35,546 bases of DNA, from positions 1 through 35,546 of IMG/VR virus record IMGVR_UViG_3300035183_000767; one strand, written 5' to 3'. Shown here piece after piece: positions 1,904-31,515 of this stretch. The notes under the pieces were generated by a model that was not told the origin of the DNA, did no database searches, and worked only from the letters and a program-made list of their open reading frames with translations. Both the position numbers and the translations under genes were made by a program. Numbering within the stretch: position 1 is the first letter of the stretch; each line of letters opens with the position of its first letter. This DNA is from a virus.

Positions 1904-2296
1904 ATGAATAATAAGTTGCGAAAGCATCCTGGCGGACGACCCACTAAATACATACCAGAGGTAATCTATCCGAAAATCGAAGAGTATATCTCTCGATGTG
2001 GAAGAGAGCAAACTTCACTTCCTACGATTGAGGGATTAGCTTTATATCTTGGTGTAAACCCTGACACTTTATTTGAGTGGGACAAGAGACATCCTGAGTT
2101 TTCCGAGTCTCTAAAGAAAATCCTAGCTCTTCAGAAAAAACAACTAATCGACGATGGCTTGTATGGAGGGAAAGAAGTAAATGCAGCGATGGCTATTTTT
2201 CTCCTAAAAGCGAATCATGGGATGAAAGAAGAACCTCAAGTACAGGTAAACGTAGGCGTCTTCAATCTTATAAGAGACAAATATGGCGAATTTTAA
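1904..2296 (+). CDS. terS: Terminase small subunit
   Basis: TerS recognises phage DNA and recruits the large subunit to start packaging. The N terminus HPGGRPTKY, a helix-turn-helix segment (PTIEGLALYLGVNPDTLFEW, residues about 42-62) and the C-terminal block AIFLLKANHGMKE are typical of phage small terminases of the GRPTKY type. The start at 1904 is chosen because it lies 7 bases after a TATAAT box; the earlier in-frame ATG (1883) would lie upstream of the transcript. The 130-aa length is usual. The gene overlaps the terminase ATPase gene by 14 bases. Confidence 0.88.
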   Translation: MNNKLRKHPGGRPTKYIPEVIYPKIEEYISRCGREQTSLPTIEGLALYLGVNPDTLFEWDKRHPEFSESLKKILALQKKQLIDDGLYGGKEVNAAMAIFLLKANHGMKEEPQVQVNVGVFNLIRDKYGEF

Positions 2297-4364
2297 AAAT
2301 TCTGAAAAATATTTAAGGTTTATCGAAGACAATTTTCTAATCGTTTCCAAAGATGGGAGAATTCAGAAATTTAACGAGAACGAAACACATTGGAATTTGC
2401 AATCTAAATTTCTCTTAGAAGATGCGACAGGACGAGATGTGATCTTGAAAGCACGGCAAATGGGATTTTCATCGATAATCCTTGCAATCTTTACAGTTGA
2501 TTTTATTGCAAAACCTAATTCTTATTCGATGGTGATTTCAGACAAGTCTGACAACTCAGAGGATTTATTACAACGAGTAAAATTTTACTTAAAAAGTTTT
2601 GAAGAACTAAATAAAATTCAAATCAAATTGAAATATAACTCAAAGTATGAGCTTTTTAATGAAGAAATCAATTCTATTTATAAAATAGGAACTGCAGAAA
2701 ACAAAGAGGTTGGAAGAAGTAAAAGTCTTTCAGGTTTACATCTCTCAGAGGCTGCGTATTTTCCAGATTTTGAGGCTATTTTGCGATCTGCACTGCAAGC
2801 GGTTGTCCCAGATGGGAAAATATTTATCGAGAGTTGTGTTAGTGGAGACACTTTAGTTTTCTCTAATAAAGGGATAAAGAAAATTAAAGATTTTTTTCCA
2901 AATACAATAGAGAAGAAGGGTTTTCTGTCAGTAGAAAATAAAATACTACTATATGGAAGAAAAGAAATAAATGAGGTTTCTGCTTTATTTTTTAATGGAT
3001 TTTCTAAAACAAAAAAAATAATTACAAGAAAAGGTTATTTTTTAGAAGGAACTTTCAATCACCCAATTTTAATAATGAAGGATGGGTTTTTAAAGTGGAA
3101 AAAAATTAATGAAATAAGAGAAGGTGATGAAGTAGTTATTCAATATAATCAAAATCTTTTTGGAAAAAATGAAATAGATAACGATTTGGCTTATTTATTA
3201 GGACTGTATATTTCAGAAGGTTATATCAGAGATAAAGGAAGAACTTGGTATATGGTTATTACAAGTGAAGATGAAGAAATACACCAATTTTTAAAAGAAA
3301 AATTTAATGCTTATAAAGATAAAGGAGACATTTTTCATTCAAGGATAGTAAATAAAACTCTAATAAAAAAAATAAAAGATTTAGGTTTTGATTTTTCAAA
3401 AAAATCATTTCAGAAAGAAATACCAGATTTTATATTAGGATTAAAAAAAGAAAACTTAAAAAATTTTATTTCTGGGATATTTGATGGCGATGGGAGTGCA
3501 AGAAGAGATAGGGGGAGTATAAATTATGTTTCAACCTCGTTAAATTTAATAAGAACAATACAAATAATTTTATTAAACTTTGGGATTGTTTCTGTAGTTA
3601 GAAAAAATACTCCACCTAAAAAGAAAAGTTTTATAAATGGGAGATATTTTATAGGAAAAAGAAATTGTTACACTCTTGAAATTAGTGGATATTTTAGCAA
3701 GATTTTTTTTGAAAAGATAGGATTTAGGTTGAAACGAAAACAAGAAGTTTATAATATTTTGAAAAACAAAAAATTTAAAAGAGTTATTTTGTTACCTTTA
3801 TATAGAAGATTAAAAGAAGATTTAGAAAAAATAAAAATTGATATAAAGGGATTATATAGAAATTATAAAATAAGTTCAGAGTGGTATTTGAACAAATCAA
3901 AAATAGAAAAGAAAACATTAGAGAAAATAATTAAAACTTTTAATATTAAAGGGTATGAAGAAATATTAAATTCTTTTTATTTTATAGATACTGTTAAAAA
4001 AATAGAATTTAGTGAAAATTATACTTATGATGTTACAGTACCAAATACCCATTCGTTTTTTTCAAATGGATTTATTTCTCATAATACTGCTAACGGCTTT
4101 AATTTCTTTAAGACCTTTTGGGATGAATGTACATTAGGAAAGCGCAACTTTCATCCCATCTTCTATCCTGCCTCCTTTTTTTACGATCATGAGTTTTTAG
4201 AGAGTAAACGAGGTGAGTTAGGAGAGGCTTTTACTCAAGAGTATCCTAATGAAGCGGCAGAGGCGTTTCTAACTACAGGGGAGACGTATTTTGAAAAAGA
4301 GGCGCTAGCGTGGTATTTAGAAAATTACAAAGCACCTTTGAGAATTTCAGAACGCTATGTTTAA
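2283..4364 (+). CDS. terL: Terminase large subunit, ATPase part, interrupted by an intein
   Basis: This is the packaging-motor ATPase. The extein halves are residues 1-184 and 602-693 (276 aa after splicing). Motifs: Walker A-like KARQMGFSS near residues 58-66, Walker B LHLSEAAYF near 151-159, and the coupling motif ES/TANG that the intein splits. The nuclease domain normally fused at the C terminus is absent and is encoded by the next gene, which overlaps by 8 bases in another frame. Splicing is required for a working ATPase, because the insertion lies within the coupling motif. The intein part is much more AT-rich than the extein parts. Confidence 0.92.
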   Translation: MANFKNSEKYLRFIEDNFLIVSKDGRIQKFNENETHWNLQSKFLLEDATGRDVILKARQMGFSSIILAIFTVDFIAKPNSYSMVISDKSDNSEDLLQRVKFYLKSFEELNKIQIKLKYNSKYELFNEEINSIYKIGTAENKEVGRSKSLSGLHLSEAAYFPDFEAILRSALQAVVPDGKIFIESCVSGDTLVFSNKGIKKIKDFFPNTIEKKGFLSVENKILLYGRKEINEVSALFFNGFSKTKKIITRKGYFLEGTFNHPILIMKDGFLKWKKINEIREGDEVVIQYNQNLFGKNEIDNDLAYLLGLYISEGYIRDKGRTWYMVITSEDEEIHQFLKEKFNAYKDKGDIFHSRIVNKTLIKKIKDLGFDFSKKSFQKEIPDFILGLKKENLKNFISGIFDGDGSARRDRGSINYVSTSLNLIRTIQIILLNFGIVSVVRKNTPPKKKSFINGRYFIGKRNCYTLEISGYFSKIFFEKIGFRLKRKQEVYNILKNKKFKRVILLPLYRRLKEDLEKIKIDIKGLYRNYKISSEWYLNKSKIEKKTLEKIIKTFNIKGYEEILNSFYFIDTVKKIEFSENYTYDVTVPNTHSFFSNGFISHNTANGFNFFKTFWDECTLGKRNFHPIFYPASFFYDHEFLESKRGELGEAFTQEYPNEAAEAFLTTGETYFEKEALAWYLENYKAPLRISERYV
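2835..4085 (+). mobile_element. Intein with LAGLIDADG (DOD) homing endonuclease, 417 aa, in TerL
   Basis: The intein starts at Cys (CVSGDTLVFSNKG, block A), has block B GTFNHPIL, two dodecapeptide endonuclease motifs (LAYLLGLYISEG and ISGIFDGDG), and ends NTHSFFSNGFISHN followed by Thr+1. All splicing residues (Cys1, block B Thr and His, penultimate His, terminal Asn, Thr+1) are present, so it looks active. Its codons are strikingly A/T-rich, as low as about 17% GC around 3361-3420, consistent with separate ancestry. Confidence 0.95.
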
Positions 4365-10112: not shown

Positions 10113-10595
10113 ATGGCTAGTTTTAAAGAAATAAAATTAACTCAGGGCAAAACAGCAATAGTTGATGCGGAAGATTTTGACTTCCTAAATCAATTTAAGT
10201 GGTATTATCATAATGGTTATGCTAGAGCGAAAATTGGGGGGAAACAAATACTTATGCATAGGTTGCTTTTACAAGCTGGTCCTAACGATATATTGGACCA
10301 TATAAACGGAAATGGATTAGATAATAGAAAGGAAAATTTGCGTTTTGCGAACAAAACTTTTAATAAAGCAAATGAGAAGTTAAGGGGTGATAACAAAACG
10401 GGTTTTAAGGGTGTTTATATGAAAAAGGATTCGCCCTATAGACATAAGAAATGGGCGGCAAAAATAGGTTTTATGGGACATCAAATACATATTGGATACT
10501 TTTACAACAAGGAAGAAGCCGCAAGGGCATATAATGAAATGGCGAGAAAACTTTTTGGTGAATTTGCGTTATTAAATCAAATAGAAAGGGGGTAG
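10113..10595 (+). mobile_element. HNH homing endonuclease with AP2 DNA-binding domain
   Basis: The 160-aa protein has an HNH_3-type nuclease half (MHRLLL, then ILDHINGNGLDNRKENLR) and a C-terminal AP2 domain (GFKGVY, WAAKIGFMGHQIHIGYF, EEAARAYNEMARKLFG). This is the standard form of free-standing phage homing endonucleases that cut intron- or gene-lacking alleles and spread by repair. It has a strong AAAGGAGGTGAG ribosome site. It sits exactly between the 112-aa gene and the start of the next structural gene and shares that gene's reading frame, its TAG being six bases before the apparent AUC start at 10602. Both begin with the residues ASF after the start. Confidence 0.92.
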
Positions 10596-12269: not shown

Positions 12270-14813
12270 ATGGCAAATATTAAAAGTGTACCAACGCAAT
12301 CAGCAGGTGTTAGTGCTAGTTCTACCACAACAGCGTGGTCTTTTGGGTCGTGGGTTCAAATCACATCAGGATTATCTGTTGTATTAAAAGTAATCGGTAT
12401 TCAGTTTCAGGAAAGTCAAAATAATCCCGCTGTTGACACTACGATAGAGAGGCTTTTTGAGATAGGGATTGGCGCTTCTGGTTCAGAGGTTACTAAACTC
12501 CAAATACCCAGTTCGGTGAGACCAGATACTACTACCTATGGACACTATTTGCCTCCAGTTAACAGAGTTTGGCTTCCAGAGCCTTATTTTATTCCAGCAA
12601 ACACGAGAATAGCAGTAAGGGTAACAGACAGTACTACGACAGCCGTTACTTACAATGGAATTAAGTTAATTTATGAGGAAGATTTACCACCTAGTGTTAT
12701 TCTTAATTCTCCAAATGATAATGCAATAACTGGTACTACCCCAACCTTTGATTTTACGGGAACAGATCCAAATGGAGATGACGTGGAGTATGAGATACAA
12801 ATATCAAATGATAGTAATTTTACTACTTCTATTACAAACACCATATCCGCAGGGGGAAACGATTTTAGGTGGTATTACAATGCTCTTTATTTTACCAACT
12901 CACAACCCGATATTGGATGGGGATATGGGGATAGTACCTATCAGGCAAACCATTCGGGATTACGATTTACAAATGTTACAATTCCTCAGGGACGTGCAAT
13001 TGTTAGTGCAAGGATTGACGTTGTAGCCTCTCAGAGCAAATCAACCAATGCAATAGCTCGAATTTATGGTGTAAATGCCGATAATGCCGCAGCCCCAACA
13101 ACTTACTCAGAAGCAGAAAATGCACCCCTAACTAGTGCTTACGTAGATTGGAGTAATCTGCCTTCATGGATCAATGATTCTACTCAATCAACACCCGAGA
13201 TAAAAGCAGTGGTGCAAGAGATAGTAAATAGAAGCGGTTGGTCAAGCGGTAACGCAATGACAATTTATATTAAAGATAACGGAACTGAACAAGTTCCTGG
13301 CACAGAACGTAAATTTTGGGCATATGATGGTAATGCATCTAAAGTTGCGAGTCTTGTGGTTGAGTATGCAACAGGAAACCAGTTTTATAGTAAGAACTCA
13401 GGAATAGATGGGGGTTTTGTCAATCCAAATAATCAACAAGATACAAATCCATTTACTTCAGGAAATAATATACAATATACAATTCAATCGCCCCTGTCTG
13501 ATTCAACTACTTATTATTGGCGAGTTAGAGCCAAAGACCCATCAGGAAGTAATACTTGGGGAACGTGGAGCGCTACAAGGAGTTTTACAGTACAGGCGGG
13601 GACAACTACCTCAGACAATCGTTCAGCAAGAACAAAAGGTTACGCTACTACCGCTGATAATCGTTCTGCTAGAACTAAAGGAGTTGCTACTACCTCAGAT
13701 ACAAGATCTGCTAGAACTAAAGGAGTTGCAATTTCTTCTGATACAAGATCTGCTCATACTAAAGGAGTTGCCACAACTTTTGATAATAGGAATGCGAGAA
13801 CAAAAGGGATGGTGACAACCTCTGACACAAGAGGGGCTCGTACTAAAGGAATAGCTACAACCTCTGATACAAGATTTGCTCGAATTAAGGGAGTTGCCAC
13901 AATATCGGATAATCGTTCAGCCAAAACTAAAGGCGGAATAATAGTAACAGATAATCGTTTGGCAAGAATAAAAGGTGTATCAACAGCAGTAGATAATCGT
14001 TCTGCCAGAATAAAAGGAGTAGATACAATCTCAAATACAAGAAATGCAAGAACGAAAGGGATTGCTAGTACATCGGATACAAGATCTGCAAGGATAAAAG
14101 GAGTTGCTACAACTTCTGATATAAGGAATGCAAGGATTAAGGGTTATCTTGTTACATCAGATACCAGAAACGCCAGAACAAAAGGTGTAGCTACTATCTC
14201 TGATACCAGAAATGTAAGGATTAGAGGTGTTGCTACGACACAAGATATAAGAGGAGCAAGAATCAAAGGGATTGCTACTACTTCAGATACTAGGGGGGCA
14301 CGAACAGTTGGGAGTAGTGCTGTTGTGTCTGATTCTCGTTCAGCGAGAATTAAAGGGATTGCGGTGGCTTTGGACAATCGTTCAGCAAGAACAAAAGGTT
14401 ATGCTACAAACTCTGATAATCGTTTGGCAAGAACTAGAGGAGTATCAACGATTTCTGACACAAGAAATGTCAGAATTAAAGGAATAGCAACAACTATCGA
14501 TACAAGATCTGCAAGAACTAAGGGACTGGATATTGCTGGAGACACTAGAAACGCAAGAACTAAGGGTTATTTTACAACCTTAGATACTAGAGATGCTAGG
14601 ATAAAGGGTAAATTAACAATATCAGATACTAAAGACGCACACATTAAGGGAGAGGAGACAATTTCAGATACAAGAGGGGCAAGGATTAAAGGAGCAATAG
14701 CAAGTTATAGAAATGCAAAAGTAAAAGGTCCTGTGGTTACTTATCCTAAATTTATTTTTGTGGATGGAGACTTAGCTATACATTTATTTGGTAAGTTTTA
14801 TATGAAGATATAG
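12270..14813 (+). CDS. Large surface protein: beta domain, fibronectin-like domain, 27 basic 14-aa repeats
   Basis: Domain order in 847 aa: residues 1-135, a beta domain paralogous to the preceding gene; about 140-200 and 385-440, parts resembling a fibronectin III or Ig-like fold (PPSVILNSPNDNAITGTTPTFDFTG; STTYYWRVRAKDPSGSNTWGTWS) around a jelly-roll-like insert; 444-820, twenty-seven tandem 14-residue repeats; and a short C-terminal tail. The repeats carry two Arg and one Lys against one Asp, so the rod is strongly basic. A fibre or surface adhesin is the likely role, with the repeat rod acting as a spacer or as a binder of acidic polymers. No enzymatic motif is visible. Confidence 0.75.
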   Translation: MANIKSVPTQSAGVSASSTTTAWSFGSWVQITSGLSVVLKVIGIQFQESQNNPAVDTTIERLFEIGIGASGSEVTKLQIPSSVRPDTTTYGHYLPPVNRVWLPEPYFIPANTRIAVRVTDSTTTAVTYNGIKLIYEEDLPPSVILNSPNDNAITGTTPTFDFTGTDPNGDDVEYEIQISNDSNFTTSITNTISAGGNDFRWYYNALYFTNSQPDIGWGYGDSTYQANHSGLRFTNVTIPQGRAIVSARIDVVASQSKSTNAIARIYGVNADNAAAPTTYSEAENAPLTSAYVDWSNLPSWINDSTQSTPEIKAVVQEIVNRSGWSSGNAMTIYIKDNGTEQVPGTERKFWAYDGNASKVASLVVEYATGNQFYSKNSGIDGGFVNPNNQQDTNPFTSGNNIQYTIQSPLSDSTTYYWRVRAKDPSGSNTWGTWSATRSFTVQAGTTTSDNRSARTKGYATTADNRSARTKGVATTSDTRSARTKGVAISSDTRSAHTKGVATTFDNRNARTKGMVTTSDTRGARTKGIATTSDTRFARIKGVATISDNRSAKTKGGIIVTDNRLARIKGVSTAVDNRSARIKGVDTISNTRNARTKGIASTSDTRSARIKGVATTSDIRNARIKGYLVTSDTRNARTKGVATISDTRNVRIRGVATTQDIRGARIKGIATTSDTRGARTVGSSAVVSDSRSARIKGIAVALDNRSARTKGYATNSDNRLARTRGVSTISDTRNVRIKGIATTIDTRSARTKGLDIAGDTRNARTKGYFTTLDTRDARIKGKLTISDTKDAHIKGEETISDTRGARIKGAIASYRNAKVKGPVVTYPKFIFVDGDLAIHLFGKFYMKI
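13599..14729 (+). repeat. 27 tandem 42-bp (14-residue) repeats
   Basis: The consensus unit is V-A-T-T-S-D-T-R-S-A-R-(T/I)-K-G. Units are 14 residues except the 18th (15) and the last (12). Asp6, Arg8, Ala10, Arg11, Lys13 and Gly14 are nearly invariant, while residues 1-5 and 9 vary. The DNA copies have diverged at synonymous sites, so the array is old or under protein-level selection rather than freshly expanded. Confidence 0.95.
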
Positions 14814-25623: not shown

Positions 25624-26151
25624 ATGCAATTGAATGAGTTTTTAGAGAAATACAATGGGAAATATATTGATGTAGATAATTACCCAGTCGGGAATAAGTT
25701 TCAATGTATGGATCTTTTACATCAATATGTTGTTGAGGTTTTAGGACTTACCGACCCTCGAATACTTGCCGCTCCCGCCGCAAGAGATTTATACAATAAC
25801 TTCGATAATATCTTTGGCAAGGAATACTTTGAAAGGATACCAAATACCCCAGATGGTGTGCCGCAAGAAGGGGATATTATTATATGGGGATATAATCCTT
25901 ACGGACACGTGGCTATTTTTGTTGAGGGGAATGTAAATAGTTTTAGGAGCTTTGACCAGAACCTACCCTTAGGCTCTCCCTGTCATATCCAAAACCATAA
26001 CTATAACAATGTCTTGGGGTGGTTAAGATTCAATCAGACTGTTAAGGTTACGCTTGATAGCAAGACATTCGAGAATTTGATATCAAAATTAGACAAACAA
26101 GAAAATTTACTTACTAAGATTAGTGATTTTTTTGATAGCGTTCTTTCTTAA
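25624..26151 (+). CDS. CHAP-domain endolysin
   Basis: The 175-aa protein has a CHAP peptidase/amidase domain: Cys28 in NKFQCMDLLHQYV and His95 in NPYGHVAIFVEG form the catalytic pair, and EGDIIIWG precedes the His as usual. It should cut peptidoglycan during lysis. The C terminus is a short helical tail (KLDKQENLLTKISDFF) rather than a known cell-wall-binding domain. The minus-strand HNH gene overlaps the last 45 bases in convergent orientation. Confidence 0.9.
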   Translation: MQLNEFLEKYNGKYIDVDNYPVGNKFQCMDLLHQYVVEVLGLTDPRILAAPAARDLYNNFDNIFGKEYFERIPNTPDGVPQEGDIIIWGYNPYGHVAIFVEGNVNSFRSFDQNLPLGSPCHIQNHNYNNVLGWLRFNQTVKVTLDSKTFENLISKLDKQENLLTKISDFFDSVLS

Positions 26152-26721
26152 TTTTGTAACTGTATGATAAAACATTTTTTCATAACATCTACGGCACATA
26201 CCTTTACTCATATGTGGAATTTCATTCGTTCCACAAGTAATACATTTATCAAATTTTTTTGCCCATTTTCCATTCAGGCGAAAATGTTCTCCAACATGTT
26301 CAGATTGAGAAATAAGTTTAAGATTTTCAATACGGTTATCACTTTTAATACCATTTATATGATGAACAATTTCATTTTTAGAAAGATAACGACCAAGATG
26401 TTTTTCCATTACAAGTCTATGTTCACGAACATAACCCATTTTATCTGCAAATGGGTGTTCTTTATTAAGAATGTGGACATATCCCTGTTCGTCAATATAT
26501 TTTCCGCCTTTCCACATATTGTTTTTTTCTCCAGCCATATACCCTTTCAGTCCTTTATTCCAGGGAATATTACCTTTCTTAAATCCTTGCAAGGGAGAAG
26601 TATGAGGATGTTTTTTCCCTGTCCAGTAACCAGGTTGTCCTTTATGAACATCACTCATATGTTGTCTATATTCAGGATTTTGCCAGAGTTTCTTCATTAT
26701 GAGAGAGCGATTTTTATCCAT
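26107..26721 (-). mobile_element. HNH homing endonuclease (HNH_3 with NUMOD-like modules)
   Basis: The 204-aa protein has NUMOD3-like DNA-binding repeats (GYWTGKKHPH; NIPWNKGLKG), an HNH_3 nuclease core (REHRLVMEKHLGRYL, then VHHINGIKSDNRIENLKL) and a C-terminal zinc-binding pair (CITCGTN and CRRCYEK). It lies opposite to all neighbours and has its own promoter. Its 3' end runs 45 bases into the endolysin gene. It is probably a recently arrived selfish gene in the lysis cassette. Confidence 0.9.
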
Positions 26722-27447: not shown

Positions 27448-28386
27448 ATGAAAGAACGCATGACAAGAAGAGACTCATTAAAACTGGGAGTCTCTCTTGT
27501 TCTCTCAACTCTAGGCACTGGTTTGGCTTTAGGTGGATTAGTATCTGAGAGTAACATTAAGCCGTATAAATTATCTACAACTTCAACTTCTGAGAATGAA
27601 CAGGAAATAGTACAAAACATCGAGCAGAAGAGGTTAGATGGGGCGTATACGCTTATCTGGGATAAAACAATTCCTATCAAAGGCGAGGATGCTTTTTTCT
27701 TGGATACGTACTATCAGCGTTTTGCAATGTATAGTATCCCATCAATTGTTAAGATCTCCCGTGAAAAGCCCCGTGAAAAGCCTTACAGCGGTATTCTGGA
27801 AGTGCCATATGATCTGTTTGAAAACTCTCCCCATCAGGAAAATATTCAAGGTATTGAGTTAACCCGTCTTCTTTTGCGATCTAGTGTTGATAAGGTATTA
27901 ATGACAGCTAAAAATCCCAATAAAATGCGATCTATTTCTGAGTGGATTTTTTTTTACTCCTATCAGCATAGCGATGGGATGGAGAAGGCAGATGATATTT
28001 TCAATCCCTATTATCAATGGAGGGGATACGAAGAAGAGTTTACTAAAACAAAAGATCTGATGCTTTCTCACCCTCTGGATTATTTTAGTGTAACTGTCTC
28101 ATCGATTGCTTACCACCCGCAAATGCTTTTTGAGTGGATAAATAGTCTTGCAACTACCAAAACGCTTGATAGAGATATATATTACCAGCCTGTTGAGGTT
28201 GAGATAGATGAGCCGTCCAAACGCTTTGCAAAACTAGTTCTTAAGGAAAGTTTTAATTTGTTATCAGAGCTTATTGTGCCAGAGGGAGAGCAAAAGGGAG
28301 ATGGATGGAAGGCACATTATGTTGAACAAACGCTTCCTGGATTCGCCAAACTGAGATTTGATTTAGGAGCTGATTCAGTTTATTAA
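27448..28386 (+). CDS. Exported protein with twin-arginine signal, unknown function
   Basis: The 312-aa product opens MKERMTRRDSLKLGVSLVL, with Arg7-Arg8 in a Tat-type motif followed by a Gly/Leu-rich hydrophobic stretch, so it is likely exported folded by the host Tat system. The mature part is a soluble domain rich in aromatic residues (FFLDTYYQRFAMYSIP; FFYSYQHSDGM; YYQWRGYEEEF). No family is recognised. Start could be ATG 27448 or 27460. An exported Tat substrate is unusual in a phage lysis region. Confidence 0.75.
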   Translation: MKERMTRRDSLKLGVSLVLSTLGTGLALGGLVSESNIKPYKLSTTSTSENEQEIVQNIEQKRLDGAYTLIWDKTIPIKGEDAFFLDTYYQRFAMYSIPSIVKISREKPREKPYSGILEVPYDLFENSPHQENIQGIELTRLLLRSSVDKVLMTAKNPNKMRSISEWIFFYSYQHSDGMEKADDIFNPYYQWRGYEEEFTKTKDLMLSHPLDYFSVTVSSIAYHPQMLFEWINSLATTKTLDRDIYYQPVEVEIDEPSKRFAKLVLKESFNLLSELIVPEGEQKGDGWKAHYVEQTLPGFAKLRFDLGADSVY

Positions 28387-28799
28387 TGAAGGAAAGAAGA
28401 AGAAATAATTTCTCTGAGTCGATCAAAAAAGATGTTCGAAGAAGTCAAAACTACCGCTGTGCTTATTGCGGCGAGTTTTGTCGTGGTCATGGATATAAAG
28501 AGCCTGTTTTAGAAATACATCATGTTTTACCTTTGTCCTTAGGAGGTGCAAACACAAGAGAGAATGCTATAGGTCTTTGTCCCTCTTGTCATAAAAGACA
28601 TAATCAGGAGGCATTGTGTAGGGGTAAACTTTTTTTTGAAACGCTTCTTTCGGAAGGAAGATTTTATGAAGTTAGGATGCTTCTTGATGTTGCTGGATTA
28701 CCTAAAAATGTAGCAGAAAAGCCATATCTTTTGTCTAAATATTTATCTCAAGAAGGAGTTATTTATAAGAAAAAAGAGGACGATTTTGGCTCTGAATGA
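28386..28799 (+). CDS. HNH endonuclease
   Basis: The 137-aa protein has a zinc-bound HNH core: CAYCGEFCRG, LEIHHVLPLSLGG, NAIGLCPSCHKRHN. The ATG overlaps the preceding stop by one base. It lies at the very end of the late transcript before a strong terminator. Circularly, this is well away from terS, so a HK97 gp74-like packaging role is less certain than for terminase-linked HNH genes. It may be homing or host-attack. Confidence 0.88.
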   Translation: MKERRRNNFSESIKKDVRRSQNYRCAYCGEFCRGHGYKEPVLEIHHVLPLSLGGANTRENAIGLCPSCHKRHNQEALCRGKLFFETLLSEGRFYEVRMLLDVAGLPKNVAEKPYLLSKYLSQEGVIYKKKEDDFGSE

Positions 28800-30225: not shown

Positions 30226-30226
30226 T

Positions 30227-30291
30227 TCAAAGGAACGAAGGAGAAAAAAATACTGCCCATTTCATGCCAAGTGCCTCCCTCGTTCCTTTGA
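30227..30291 (-). promoter_or_regulatory. Leader hairpin and 12-codon leader ORF before the minus-strand operon
   Basis: A 17-bp inverted repeat with one mismatch (30227-30243 and 30275-30291) encloses 31 bases. On the minus strand a leader ORF (MKWAVFFSPSFL) starts at ATG 30265, behind GGGAGG which is itself in the 5' arm of the hairpin. It ends with TGA two bases before the zinc-finger ATG. Ribosome movement would open the arm that hides the downstream start. This is the layout of a translational attenuator. Confidence 0.6.
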
Positions 30292-30296
30292 CAGGA

Positions 30297-30380
30297 AAAC
30301 GCCATTTTTTTCGCATTGCTAGCTTGAAATATCTTTCAAATTAGCAATCCGTGTAGAAGTCGTAACTTCTACAGGTAATT
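30297..30380. other. Non-coding leader with two hairpins
   Basis: This is the minus-strand leader between promoter 30383-30411 and the leader ORF. Two hairpins are visible in plus-strand coordinates: ATTGCTA near 30315 pairs with TAGCAAT, with an inner TTGAAA/TTTCAA stem, and TGTAGAAGT near 30352 pairs with ACTTCTACA. No ORF is seen. Confidence 0.6.
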
Positions 30381-30382
30381 GT

Positions 30383-30411
30383 ATTACAACACAATTATTT
30401 GCATTTGTCAA
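30383..30411 (-). promoter_or_regulatory. Promoter of the minus-strand RusA/sigma operon
   Basis: On the minus strand, TTGACA (30406-30411), a 17-base spacer and TGTAAT (30383-30388). The -10 lies in an AATTGT...ACAATT inverted repeat, a likely operator. The -35 is only 16 bp from the -35 of the divergent plus-strand promoter. Confidence 0.8.
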
Positions 30412-30427
30412 GAGGAATTTTGGTATA

Positions 30428-30456
30428 TTGACAAAAATCAAAAGAAATGGTAGAGT
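30428..30456 (+). promoter_or_regulatory. Promoter of the HNH / early plus-strand unit
   Basis: TTGACA (30428-30433), a 17-base spacer and TAGAGT (30451-30456). Eight bases later lies ATG 30465, opening only M-S-K before TGA. The transcript start coincides with the first base of the structured leader. Confidence 0.8.
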
Positions 30457-30463
30457 TAAAAAA

Positions 30464-30574
30464 GATGAGTAAGTGAATTAGGGTCGAAAGTCCGTTTATT
30501 GTAGGGCTTAAAACCAAAGGCACGACCCTAAGCCTGCTTACTCATAAAAGTCCTACAATAAGCGGATTTTTGTT
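30464..30574 (+). promoter_or_regulatory. Attenuator leader RNA with interleaved helices and terminator
   Basis: Three helices are present: H1 30465-30473 with 30537-30545 (9 bp, covers AUGAGUAAG), H2 30478-30486 with 30523-30531 (9 bp), and H3 30491-30509 with 30548-30566 (19 bp, two G-U pairs) followed by TTTTTGTT. H1 and H2 are nested; H3 crosses both, so they form either a pseudoknot or two exclusive folds. H3 is the terminator; H1/H2 would act as anti-terminator. The HNH ATG follows at 30575. A ligand, protein or ribosome on the MSK mini-ORF could decide. Confidence 0.7.
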
Positions 30575-31060
30575 ATGAATTATAAACAATATTTAAATTC
30601 TACTCATTGGCAAAAAATAAAAACTACTGTTTATAAAAAAAGACGTAAATGTCAAATATGCGGAAAATCATTTAACCTTAATATTCACCACATAACCTAT
30701 GAAAGATTAGGAAAAGAACTTCTATCTGATTTAGTAGTTCTATGTCAATCTTGCCATTATAAGGCTCATAAAATAAATATGTATAAAGAAGGAGCAGAAT
30801 TTAAAGCAAAACATTATAATTTAAAATACAAAAAATCAACTAATCCAATAGCCTATCTTTTAGGTATTTATAGAAAAGCTCAACGTAACCGTAATTTTTC
30901 AACTGTAATTAGTTTTATAGATGAATTGAATAAATCTCAATTGACACCGCAAGACTTAAGACAATTGGAAGTAATAAAAAAGATAACCAACAAGTATAGA
31001 GTAGCATTAACAGCTACCCCCGATCAAAGCGGCAGTCTGACTAGGGGAGCGCAATACTAG
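30575..31060 (+). CDS. HNH endonuclease, 161 aa, flanked by structured RNA on both sides
   Basis: The N-terminal half is an HNH domain: LNSTHWQKIKTTVYKKR, CQICGKSFNLNIHHITYERLG, LVVLCQSCHYKAHK. The C-terminal half is helical and basic (YRKAQRNRNFSTVISFIDEL). The last 15 codons run into a GC-rich structured RNA. It has no ribosome site; the ATG follows the T tract of the leader terminator. Free-standing HNH genes tied to RNA elements include intron-encoded and HEARO/OMEGA-type systems, but this ORF is far shorter than IscB. The gene itself is about 22% GC, its RNA about 48%. Confidence 0.88.
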   Translation: MNYKQYLNSTHWQKIKTTVYKKRRKCQICGKSFNLNIHHITYERLGKELLSDLVVLCQSCHYKAHKINMYKEGAEFKAKHYNLKYKKSTNPIAYLLGIYRKAQRNRNFSTVISFIDELNKSQLTPQDLRQLEVIKKITNKYRVALTATPDQSGSLTRGAQY

Positions 31061-31320
31061 CGCTATAGAAAAAAAGGGTCAAGCAAGGGTACTGCTTACT
31101 GGTAAGCTACGGAAATACCAGTCTTATGCCGAAAAAGCAGAAAAAGTCGTTCTCTGTATGACGACACCCGACTAGCGGTGACACTTGGAAACGAAGAAAC
31201 CCGCTAAGAACATACAGATGCAGGAGGGCGGAGAGAAAACCGAATAAAACCTCCGAAGATATTAAAGGTCATAACTTTAAGAACGACCAATAAAGGGGAC
31301 TATCTTATCCGAAAAAGTAT
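31010..31320 (+). ncRNA. GC-rich structured RNA candidate downstream of the HNH gene
   Basis: About 300 bases without a credible ORF stand out at roughly 48% GC in an AT-rich region. Visible helices: 31048-31052/31060-31064; 31098-31104/31116-31122 (7 bp); 31146-31150/31161-31165, whose loop (31153-31160) pairs perfectly with 31211-31218 (8 bp), giving a pseudoknot; 31173-31178/31201-31206; 31223-31227/31250-31254 with inner 31229-31231/31240-31242; and 31267-31270/31285-31288. The motif CUUAU(G)CCGAAAAAG occurs twice (31123-31137 and 31304-31317). I could not fit a group I, group II, tmRNA or RNase P core. The RNA may be an intron remnant, a guide RNA or a new class. Confidence 0.65.
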
Positions 31321-31332
31321 ATAAAACTATAT

Positions 31333-31515
31333 ATGATTATGTCTTCTTATAATTTAAAAGATAAAATAGAAAATAGAATCTTATATTTAGAAAATCGACT
31401 TGCTGAAATTGTTAATGAGGCTAAATTTGCGACGGAGGAGAAAAAAGAGTTTTTAAGAGTTGGATATAAATTGTTGTTAGAAGAAAAGAGAAAGTTAGAA
31501 AAAACGGCGCAATGA
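31333..31515 (+). CDS. Small helical protein, 60 aa
   Basis: The product is a charged helix throughout (KDKIENRILYLENRLAEIVN; LLLEEKRKLEKTAQ), probably a short coiled-coil dimer. No family is recognised. Start may be ATG 31333 or 31339. It directly follows the structured RNA; the frame is open back to 31294. Confidence 0.6.
   Translation: MIMSSYNLKDKIENRILYLENRLAEIVNEAKFATEEKKEFLRVGYKLLLEEKRKLEKTAQ

What the first reader, a model, noticed from the sequence alone, without database searches (positions are those of the whole stretch)
30428..31330. Compact unit: promoter, switching leader RNA, HNH gene, then a GC-rich pseudoknotted RNA
A promoter feeds a leader with three interleaved helices and a terminator. 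It is followed by an HNH nuclease gene of about 22% GC and then about 300 bases of non-coding sequence near 48% GC with several helices and a pseudoknot. HNH genes tied to RNA are known from introns and from HEARO/OMEGA systems, but neither the ORF length nor any core motif I know fits here. This may be an undescribed RNA-associated nuclease element or a diverged mobile intron.
Basis: partly seen in the sequence, partly recalled or inferred. Interest (0 to 1): 0.85.

Follow-up and report, generated by a model that had tools for sequence, protein, structure and literature searches.

The report
Hidden group I intron carrying HNH nuclease
In a phage genome, a small DNA-cutting (HNH) gene sits inside the two halves of a worn or unusual self-splicing RNA of the known group I type, related to introns of phage T4 but missed by the standard RNA library; it is a disguised member of a known kind of selfish element rather than a new RNA-guided system.

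Summary
There is a strong promoter (30428-30456), a leader with interleaved helices (z -5.6), an HNH ORF and about 300 bases of GC-richer non-coding sequence. The 3' sequence alone folds only slightly better than chance (z -1.7).

The two RNA pieces are best read as the halves of one diverged group IA intron core, with the HNH ORF in the P6 loop, as I-TevI lies in T4 td. Two signatures taken from the T4 td and nrdB introns each occur once in the window, one on each side of the ORF and in the right order. They are otherwise almost absent from 2.8 Mb. P3-P9 can be drawn, including the bulged P7. Rfam misses it, but Rfam also misses the td intron in the same kind of scan.

The 5' splice site and P1 were not found. 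The promoter and an ATG sit where they should be. So it is either an intron with an odd 5' end or a truncated intron turned into an HNH expression unit. HEARO/OMEGA is not supported. No homologue of the RNA was found, so there is no covariation evidence. Splicing is not shown.

The parts
30428..30456 (+). sigma70-type promoter, TTGACA-17-TAGAGT
   Evidence: same type as 31667 and 32447 in this genome and in related phages
30465..30475 (+). ATG AGT AAG TG(A): start codon at leaderless distance (8 nt after -10) followed by a stop after 3 codons; also 5' strand of helix A; 30468-30475 is the proposed 5' strand of P3
30468..30475 (+). P3 5' strand, pairs with 31093-31100 (8 bp, 2 G-U)
30476..30493 (+). 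P element: J3/4 AAUU, P4 5' strand, J4/5, P5 5' strand (AAUU-N6-GAAAGUCC, as in the T4 nrdB intron)
30494..30503 (+). P5 loop GUUUAUUGUA, perfectly complementary to loop 30554-30563
30504..30531 (+). Q element: P5 3' strand, J5/4, P4 3' strand (CGACCCUAA)
30532..30539 (+). P6 5' strand GCC(U)GCUU, pairs with 31027-31033; overlaps the 3' strand of helix A
30546..30571 (+). hairpin D (AAAAGUCC/GGAUUUUU) with kissing loop 30554-30563; alternatively 3' arm of the 25-bp C helix
30575..31060 (+). HNH homing-endonuclease-type ORF (161 aa), no Shine-Dalgarno; its last ~17 codons run into the RNA core
31027..31043 (+). P6 3' strand AAGCGGC, J6/7, R element with P7 5' strand C[U]GACU(A)
31048..31064 (+). 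P7.1 hairpin AGCGC/GCGCU
31075..31084 (+). AGGGUCAAGC, the P7.2 motif shared with T4 nrdB (and AGGGUCAAG with td)
31093..31100 (+). P3 3' strand UGCUUACU
31106..31138 (+). P8 (GC..CGG/CCG..GC), weak
31139..31149 (+). S element: J8/7 AGAAAA and P7 3' strand AGUCG
31153..31311 (+). P9 domain: P9 31153-60/31211-18, P9.1 31173-78/31201-06, P9.2 31223-27/31250-54, further hairpin 31262-31280; tentative 3' end near G31311
   Evidence: the 3' end is inference
31294..31515 (+). downstream open frame (60 aa from ATG 31333), codon usage like a gene, no Shine-Dalgarno, weak -10 TATAAA only; candidate 3' exon or separate leaderless gene

Best explanation
The unit is a diverged group IA (IA2-like) intron core split by an HNH homing-endonuclease gene in the loop of P6, as in T4 td. 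The leader supplies P3 5', P4, P5 and P6 5'. The GC-richer 3' segment supplies P6 3', P7, P7.1, the P7.2 motif, P3 3', P8, P7 3' and a P9 domain. Inferred mechanism: the HNH protein cuts intron-less DNA and spreads the element by repair (homing), while the ribozyme core would remove the RNA from the host transcript. The promoter at 30428 starts transcription almost exactly at P3, so the HNH gene can be expressed without a host-gene promoter. Shown here: the sequence signatures, their order and the possible helices. Inferred: catalytic activity, homing and the 3' end. Not found: P1 and the 5' splice site. So it may be a 5'-truncated, promoter-driven derivative that no longer splices (I put continued splicing at about 0.3).
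For: 1) A signature from the T4 nrdB intron (AATT-N3-8-GAAAGTCC) occurs once in the window, at 30476. A signature shared by T4 td and nrdB (GACTA-N8-45-GGGTCAAG) occurs once, at 31039. They flank the HNH ORF in the right order. In 2.78 Mb (both strands) of other loci the counts are 1 and 0 (the one lies in a coding gene). In 50,000 shuffles they occur 8 and 18 times. GAAAGTCCN0-2TTTAT is expected 0.02 times per window. 2) A full descriptor (J3/4 AAUU, P4, J4/5, P5, P6, bulged P7 with C-G and G-C, A-rich J8/7, P3) is met by the window and by 4 of 20,000 shuffles (its limits were tuned after seeing the sequence). 3) All core helices can be drawn; P9 has 8 perfect pairs right after P7. 4) Rfam silence is weak evidence. 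In a permissive scan with the E limit at 0.5, RF00028 finds T4 nrdB (35.7 bits) and Baka (28.6 bits), both under its gathering score, and misses T4 td, whose ORF also lies in the core. 5) HNH of the homing type; the genome also carries a terminase intein and three more HNH genes.
Against: No RF00028 match even at E 10. No homologue of the RNA in IMG/VR, phage records, GTDB genomes or 80 TerL-relative loci, so no covariation test; the collections were mostly reached through proteins, not with the RNA itself. No convincing P1/U.G or 5' exon upstream of P3, and the upstream gene is divergent. J8/7 and P8 are atypical. P3 competes with helix A, which is longer. Gapped pairwise alignments to td and nrdB are no better than shuffles; only the short signatures stand out. 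MFE z of the 3' half is only -1.7.
Confidence: 0.8

Rival explanations
1. The element is a spliced intron inserted after codon 3 of a leaderless early gene: exon 1 is ATG AGT AAG(T), helix A is its P1 (exon paired with guide 30536-30545, U.G at the splice site), exon 2 is the ORF at 31294-31515.
For: In the window and relatives, ATGs 5-10 nt after a TTGACA-17-TANNNT promoter open at least 30 codons in 30 of 31 distinct cases; the one exception is ATG 30465. ORF 31294-31515 has gene-like codon usage but no SD and no good promoter. Helix A starts exactly at the AUG.
Against: In the group IA fold the same bases are the 5' strand of P3, so they cannot be exon. Frame, omega-G and U.G rules agree only for an odd 3' site (G31360). 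An ATG at that distance arises by chance fairly often (rough estimate 10%).
Confidence: 0.2
2. A free-standing HNH gene lies by chance between a phage regulatory leader (attenuator or small RNA ending at hairpin D) and an unrelated structured RNA.
For: The region upstream (30226-30450) is also rich in perfect inverted repeats; the leader alone is bistable; the mini-ORF ATG AGT AAG TGA lies exactly in helix A.
Against: Both halves carry T4-intron signatures in the right order and can be joined by P3 and P6.
Confidence: 0.12
3. A new RNA-guided or RNA-associated nuclease (HEARO/OMEGA-like).
For: An HNH gene next to structured RNA on both sides.
Against: No RuvC or other nuclease domain, 161 aa, no HEARO or other Rfam match; the RNA is explained by group I elements; the best HNH relatives lack the RNA.
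Confidence: 0.02

Closest known systems
T4 nrdB group IA2 intron (HNH endonuclease I-TevIII)
   Same: AATT-N-GAAAGTCC-TTTAT in P/P4-P5, GACTA...AGGGTCAAGC in P7-P7.2, HNH-type ORF in the intron
   Different: P4 longer, J8/7 AGAAAA instead of GUGAUAU, P7.2 hairpin not completed, no P1/5' exon found here
T4 td group IA2 intron (I-TevI)
   Same: ORF between P6 strands, GACTA...AGGGTCAAG; also invisible to RF00028 in the scan
   Different: td has a clear U.G P1 and 5' exon and a GIY-YIG endonuclease
LittleE and Baka introns of cluster J mycobacteriophages (PMC3706429)
   Same: phage introns first seen as gene interruptions; the authors call the LittleE type unclear but most likely group I; LittleE has an endonuclease ORF in an ~820-bp insertion; Baka scores 28.6 bits, under gathering
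   Different: splicing was shown there by RT-PCR; known intron-less relatives
HEARO/IscB (PMC9755519)
   Same: HNH nuclease gene with adjacent structured RNA
   Different: HEARO ORFs have RuvC and HNH domains and arginine-rich motifs; none here

Membership tests
group I intron (subgroup IA) | P, Q, R, S elements in order | tested here: met
   shuffles 8 and 18 of 50,000 for two signatures
group I intron (subgroup IA) | P3-P8/P4-P6 core pairings with bulged P7 and G-C guanosine site | tested here: met
   can be drawn, 4 of 20,000 shuffles meet the descriptor; not supported by covariation
group I intron (subgroup IA) | P7.1/P7.2 between P7 and P3 3' | tested here: inconclusive
   P7.1 hairpin present, AGGGUCAAGC motif present, but the P7.2 stem is not completed
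group I intron (subgroup IA) | covariance-model match (Rfam RF00028) | tested here: not met
   the control T4 td also fails, so this is weak evidence
group I intron (subgroup IA) | P1 with U.G at the 5' splice site, omega-G at the 3' end, exons that join in frame | tested here: inconclusive
   no convincing P1 upstream; helix A has a U.G but overlaps P3
group I intron (subgroup IA) | splicing or catalysis | not testable with these tools
   needs RNA work
group II intron | domain V / RF00029 match | tested here: not met
   no GUGYG start
HEARO/OMEGA (IscB) | RuvC plus HNH protein and conserved HEARO RNA | tested here: not met
HNH homing endonuclease | zinc-type HNH domain matching curated families | tested here: met
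   Pfam PF01844 E 8e-7, several PHROG HNH families

The most novel reading that the evidence does not exclude
A group I intron that has lost its exon-recognition end (P1) and been placed under its own promoter starting at P3, so that the ribozyme core survives as the flanks of an HNH gene, with a bistable element (helix A against P3+P6, and kissing loops L5 and D) that chooses between ribozyme folding and HNH expression.
Probability: 0.15. Interest if true: 0.65.

Novelty: new member of a known kind. Interest (0 to 1): 0.35.

Why it matters
It shows that intron-borne HNH genes can hide from Rfam when the ORF splits the core, and gives short signature pairs that recover them. If the 5' end is really gone, it would be a case of an intron core turned into a stand-alone, promoter-driven homing cassette. 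The relatives also show a phage group whose early genes are consistently leaderless.

Tried and rejected
(1) Riboswitch or attenuator: bistable leader real but better explained as P3-P6 of the ribozyme. (2) Translational bypassing from AAG 30471 to AAG 30548: codons match and a stop follows, but it would happen at codon 3 and HNH relatives start at the ATG equivalent to 30575. (3) Intron after codon 3 with helix A as P1: kept as a rival. (4) Other group I cores lying wholly in the 3' segment: an automatic helix search finds td's core first but does not separate it from shuffles. (5) L067 3343-3450 as a homologue of the leader: 15 of 500 shuffles align as well, no structure signal. (6) L030 and L064, HNH genes followed by non-coding sequence: no alignment of the L030 RNA to the window RNA, no Rfam match for either. 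(7) L102 and L071 short matches: inside coding genes. (8) L036 signature hit: inside a coding gene. (9) Exon-2 homologues in relatives: none convincing.

Full report
Check of the observation. The window is one 35,546-base virus record of a podovirus-like phage (P22-type coat protein, about 33% identical to known phages). The promoter, leader helices, HNH ORF and GC-richer 3' stretch are all present. Corrections: HNH GC is 26-29% rather than 22%, the terminator is not a canonical one, and the 3' segment folds only weakly better than shuffles (z -1.7). The leader folds far better than chance (z -5.6). Its two main folds are almost equal in energy: A+B plus hairpin D (-37.7) and the 25-bp C helix (-39.0). 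The first contains two 10-nt loops that are perfect complements of each other.

Relatives. The HNH protein has many weak relatives, but the ones examined lack the RNA. The phage's own relatives were reached through its SSAP and terminase. None of the 147 loci pooled for this search (1.37 Mb), nor the 16 relative records searched whole with the 3' RNA, holds a convincing homologue. Covariation could therefore not be tested.

Leaderless genes. In this phage and its relatives, TTGACA-17-TANNNT promoters place an ATG 5-10 nt after the -10 box. In 30 of 31 distinct cases this ATG opens at least 30 codons. The exception is the ATG at 30465, which meets TGA after three codons. The frame 31294-31515 has gene-like codon usage but no SD and only a weak promoter. 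This first suggested an intron in a leaderless gene.

Identification. The Rfam group I consensus printed for control introns has its P, Q, R and S elements recognisable around the ORF: AGUAAGU-GAAUU-AGGGUCG-AAA-GUCC and CGACCCU-AA-GCC before it, CAGUCUGACUA and CAGAAAAAGUC after it. I then defined two signatures from the T4 td and nrdB introns and counted them. I chose them after seeing the resemblance in the window, so the counts are a guide to rarity, not a blind test. AATT-N3-8-GAAAGTCC occurs once in the window (30476) and GACTA-N8-45-GGGTCAAG once (31039), each on its side of the ORF. In 2.78 Mb of other sequence they occur once (in a coding gene) and never. Shuffles give 8 and 18 per 50,000. 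A wider descriptor is met by 4 of 20,000 shuffles; its limits were also set after seeing the sequence. The resulting core is P3 30468-75/31093-100, P4 30478-86/30523-31, P5 30488-93/30504-09, P6 30532-39/31027-33, P7 31037-42/31145-49 with a bulged U, P7.1 31048-64, P8 (weak) 31106-38 and P9 31153-60/31211-18. The HNH ORF lies in P6, as I-TevI does in td.

Why Rfam is silent. In one scan with the E limit at 0.5, RF00028 found T4 nrdB (35.7 bits) and the Baka intron (28.6 bits), which has been shown to splice (PMC3706429), both below the gathering score of 50. It did not report the T4 td intron, which has a large ORF inside the core. The absence of a match is therefore weak evidence.

What does not fit. 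No P1 with a U.G pair was found upstream of P3. The upstream gene runs the other way, and the promoter starts transcription at about P3. Helix A pairs the P3 5' strand with the P6 5' strand, because P6 5' and P3 3' share CUGCUUACU, so the leader can misfold or switch. Either the 5' end is unusual or the element is a truncated intron that now serves as an HNH expression unit. Splicing, catalysis and homing are inference.

Verdict. A diverged group IA intron core carrying an HNH gene (0.8). It is a new member of a known kind, with an unexplained 5' end.

Noticed in passing
window 30302-30450: Four perfect hairpins inside one outer stem (cloverleaf) between divergent early genes, z -6.0 on + and -7.2 on - strand; the promoter's TTGACA is one arm of a hairpin. 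Origin, operators or a lost 5' part of the intron are all possible.
   Followed up: partly
window 30227-30291: A further 12-bp perfect inverted repeat ending just before the start codon of the leftward gene.
   Followed up: no
window 31667, 32447 and L067, L071, L078, L080 and others: Early genes of this phage group are leaderless: ATG 5-10 nt after a TTGACA-17-TANNNT promoter in 30 of 31 distinct cases.
   Followed up: yes
window 2283-4364: Terminase large subunit carries an intein with a LAGLIDADG domain.
   Followed up: no
window 10113-10595, 26107-26721 (-), 28386-28799: Three more HNH-type genes (AP2-HNH, NUMOD3-HNH, HNH).
   Followed up: no
window 30494-30503 and 30554-30563: Two 10-nt hairpin loops perfectly complementary to each other (kissing loops), one in P5, one just before the HNH start codon.
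   Followed up: partly
L030 3974-4884: Another phage HNH gene with a leaderless-type start followed by more than 350 bases of non-coding sequence without Rfam match; fold no better than shuffles.
   Followed up: partly
window 12270-14813: Tail-region protein with about 30 degenerate repeats of the type 'TTSDTRSARTKGVA'.
   Followed up: no
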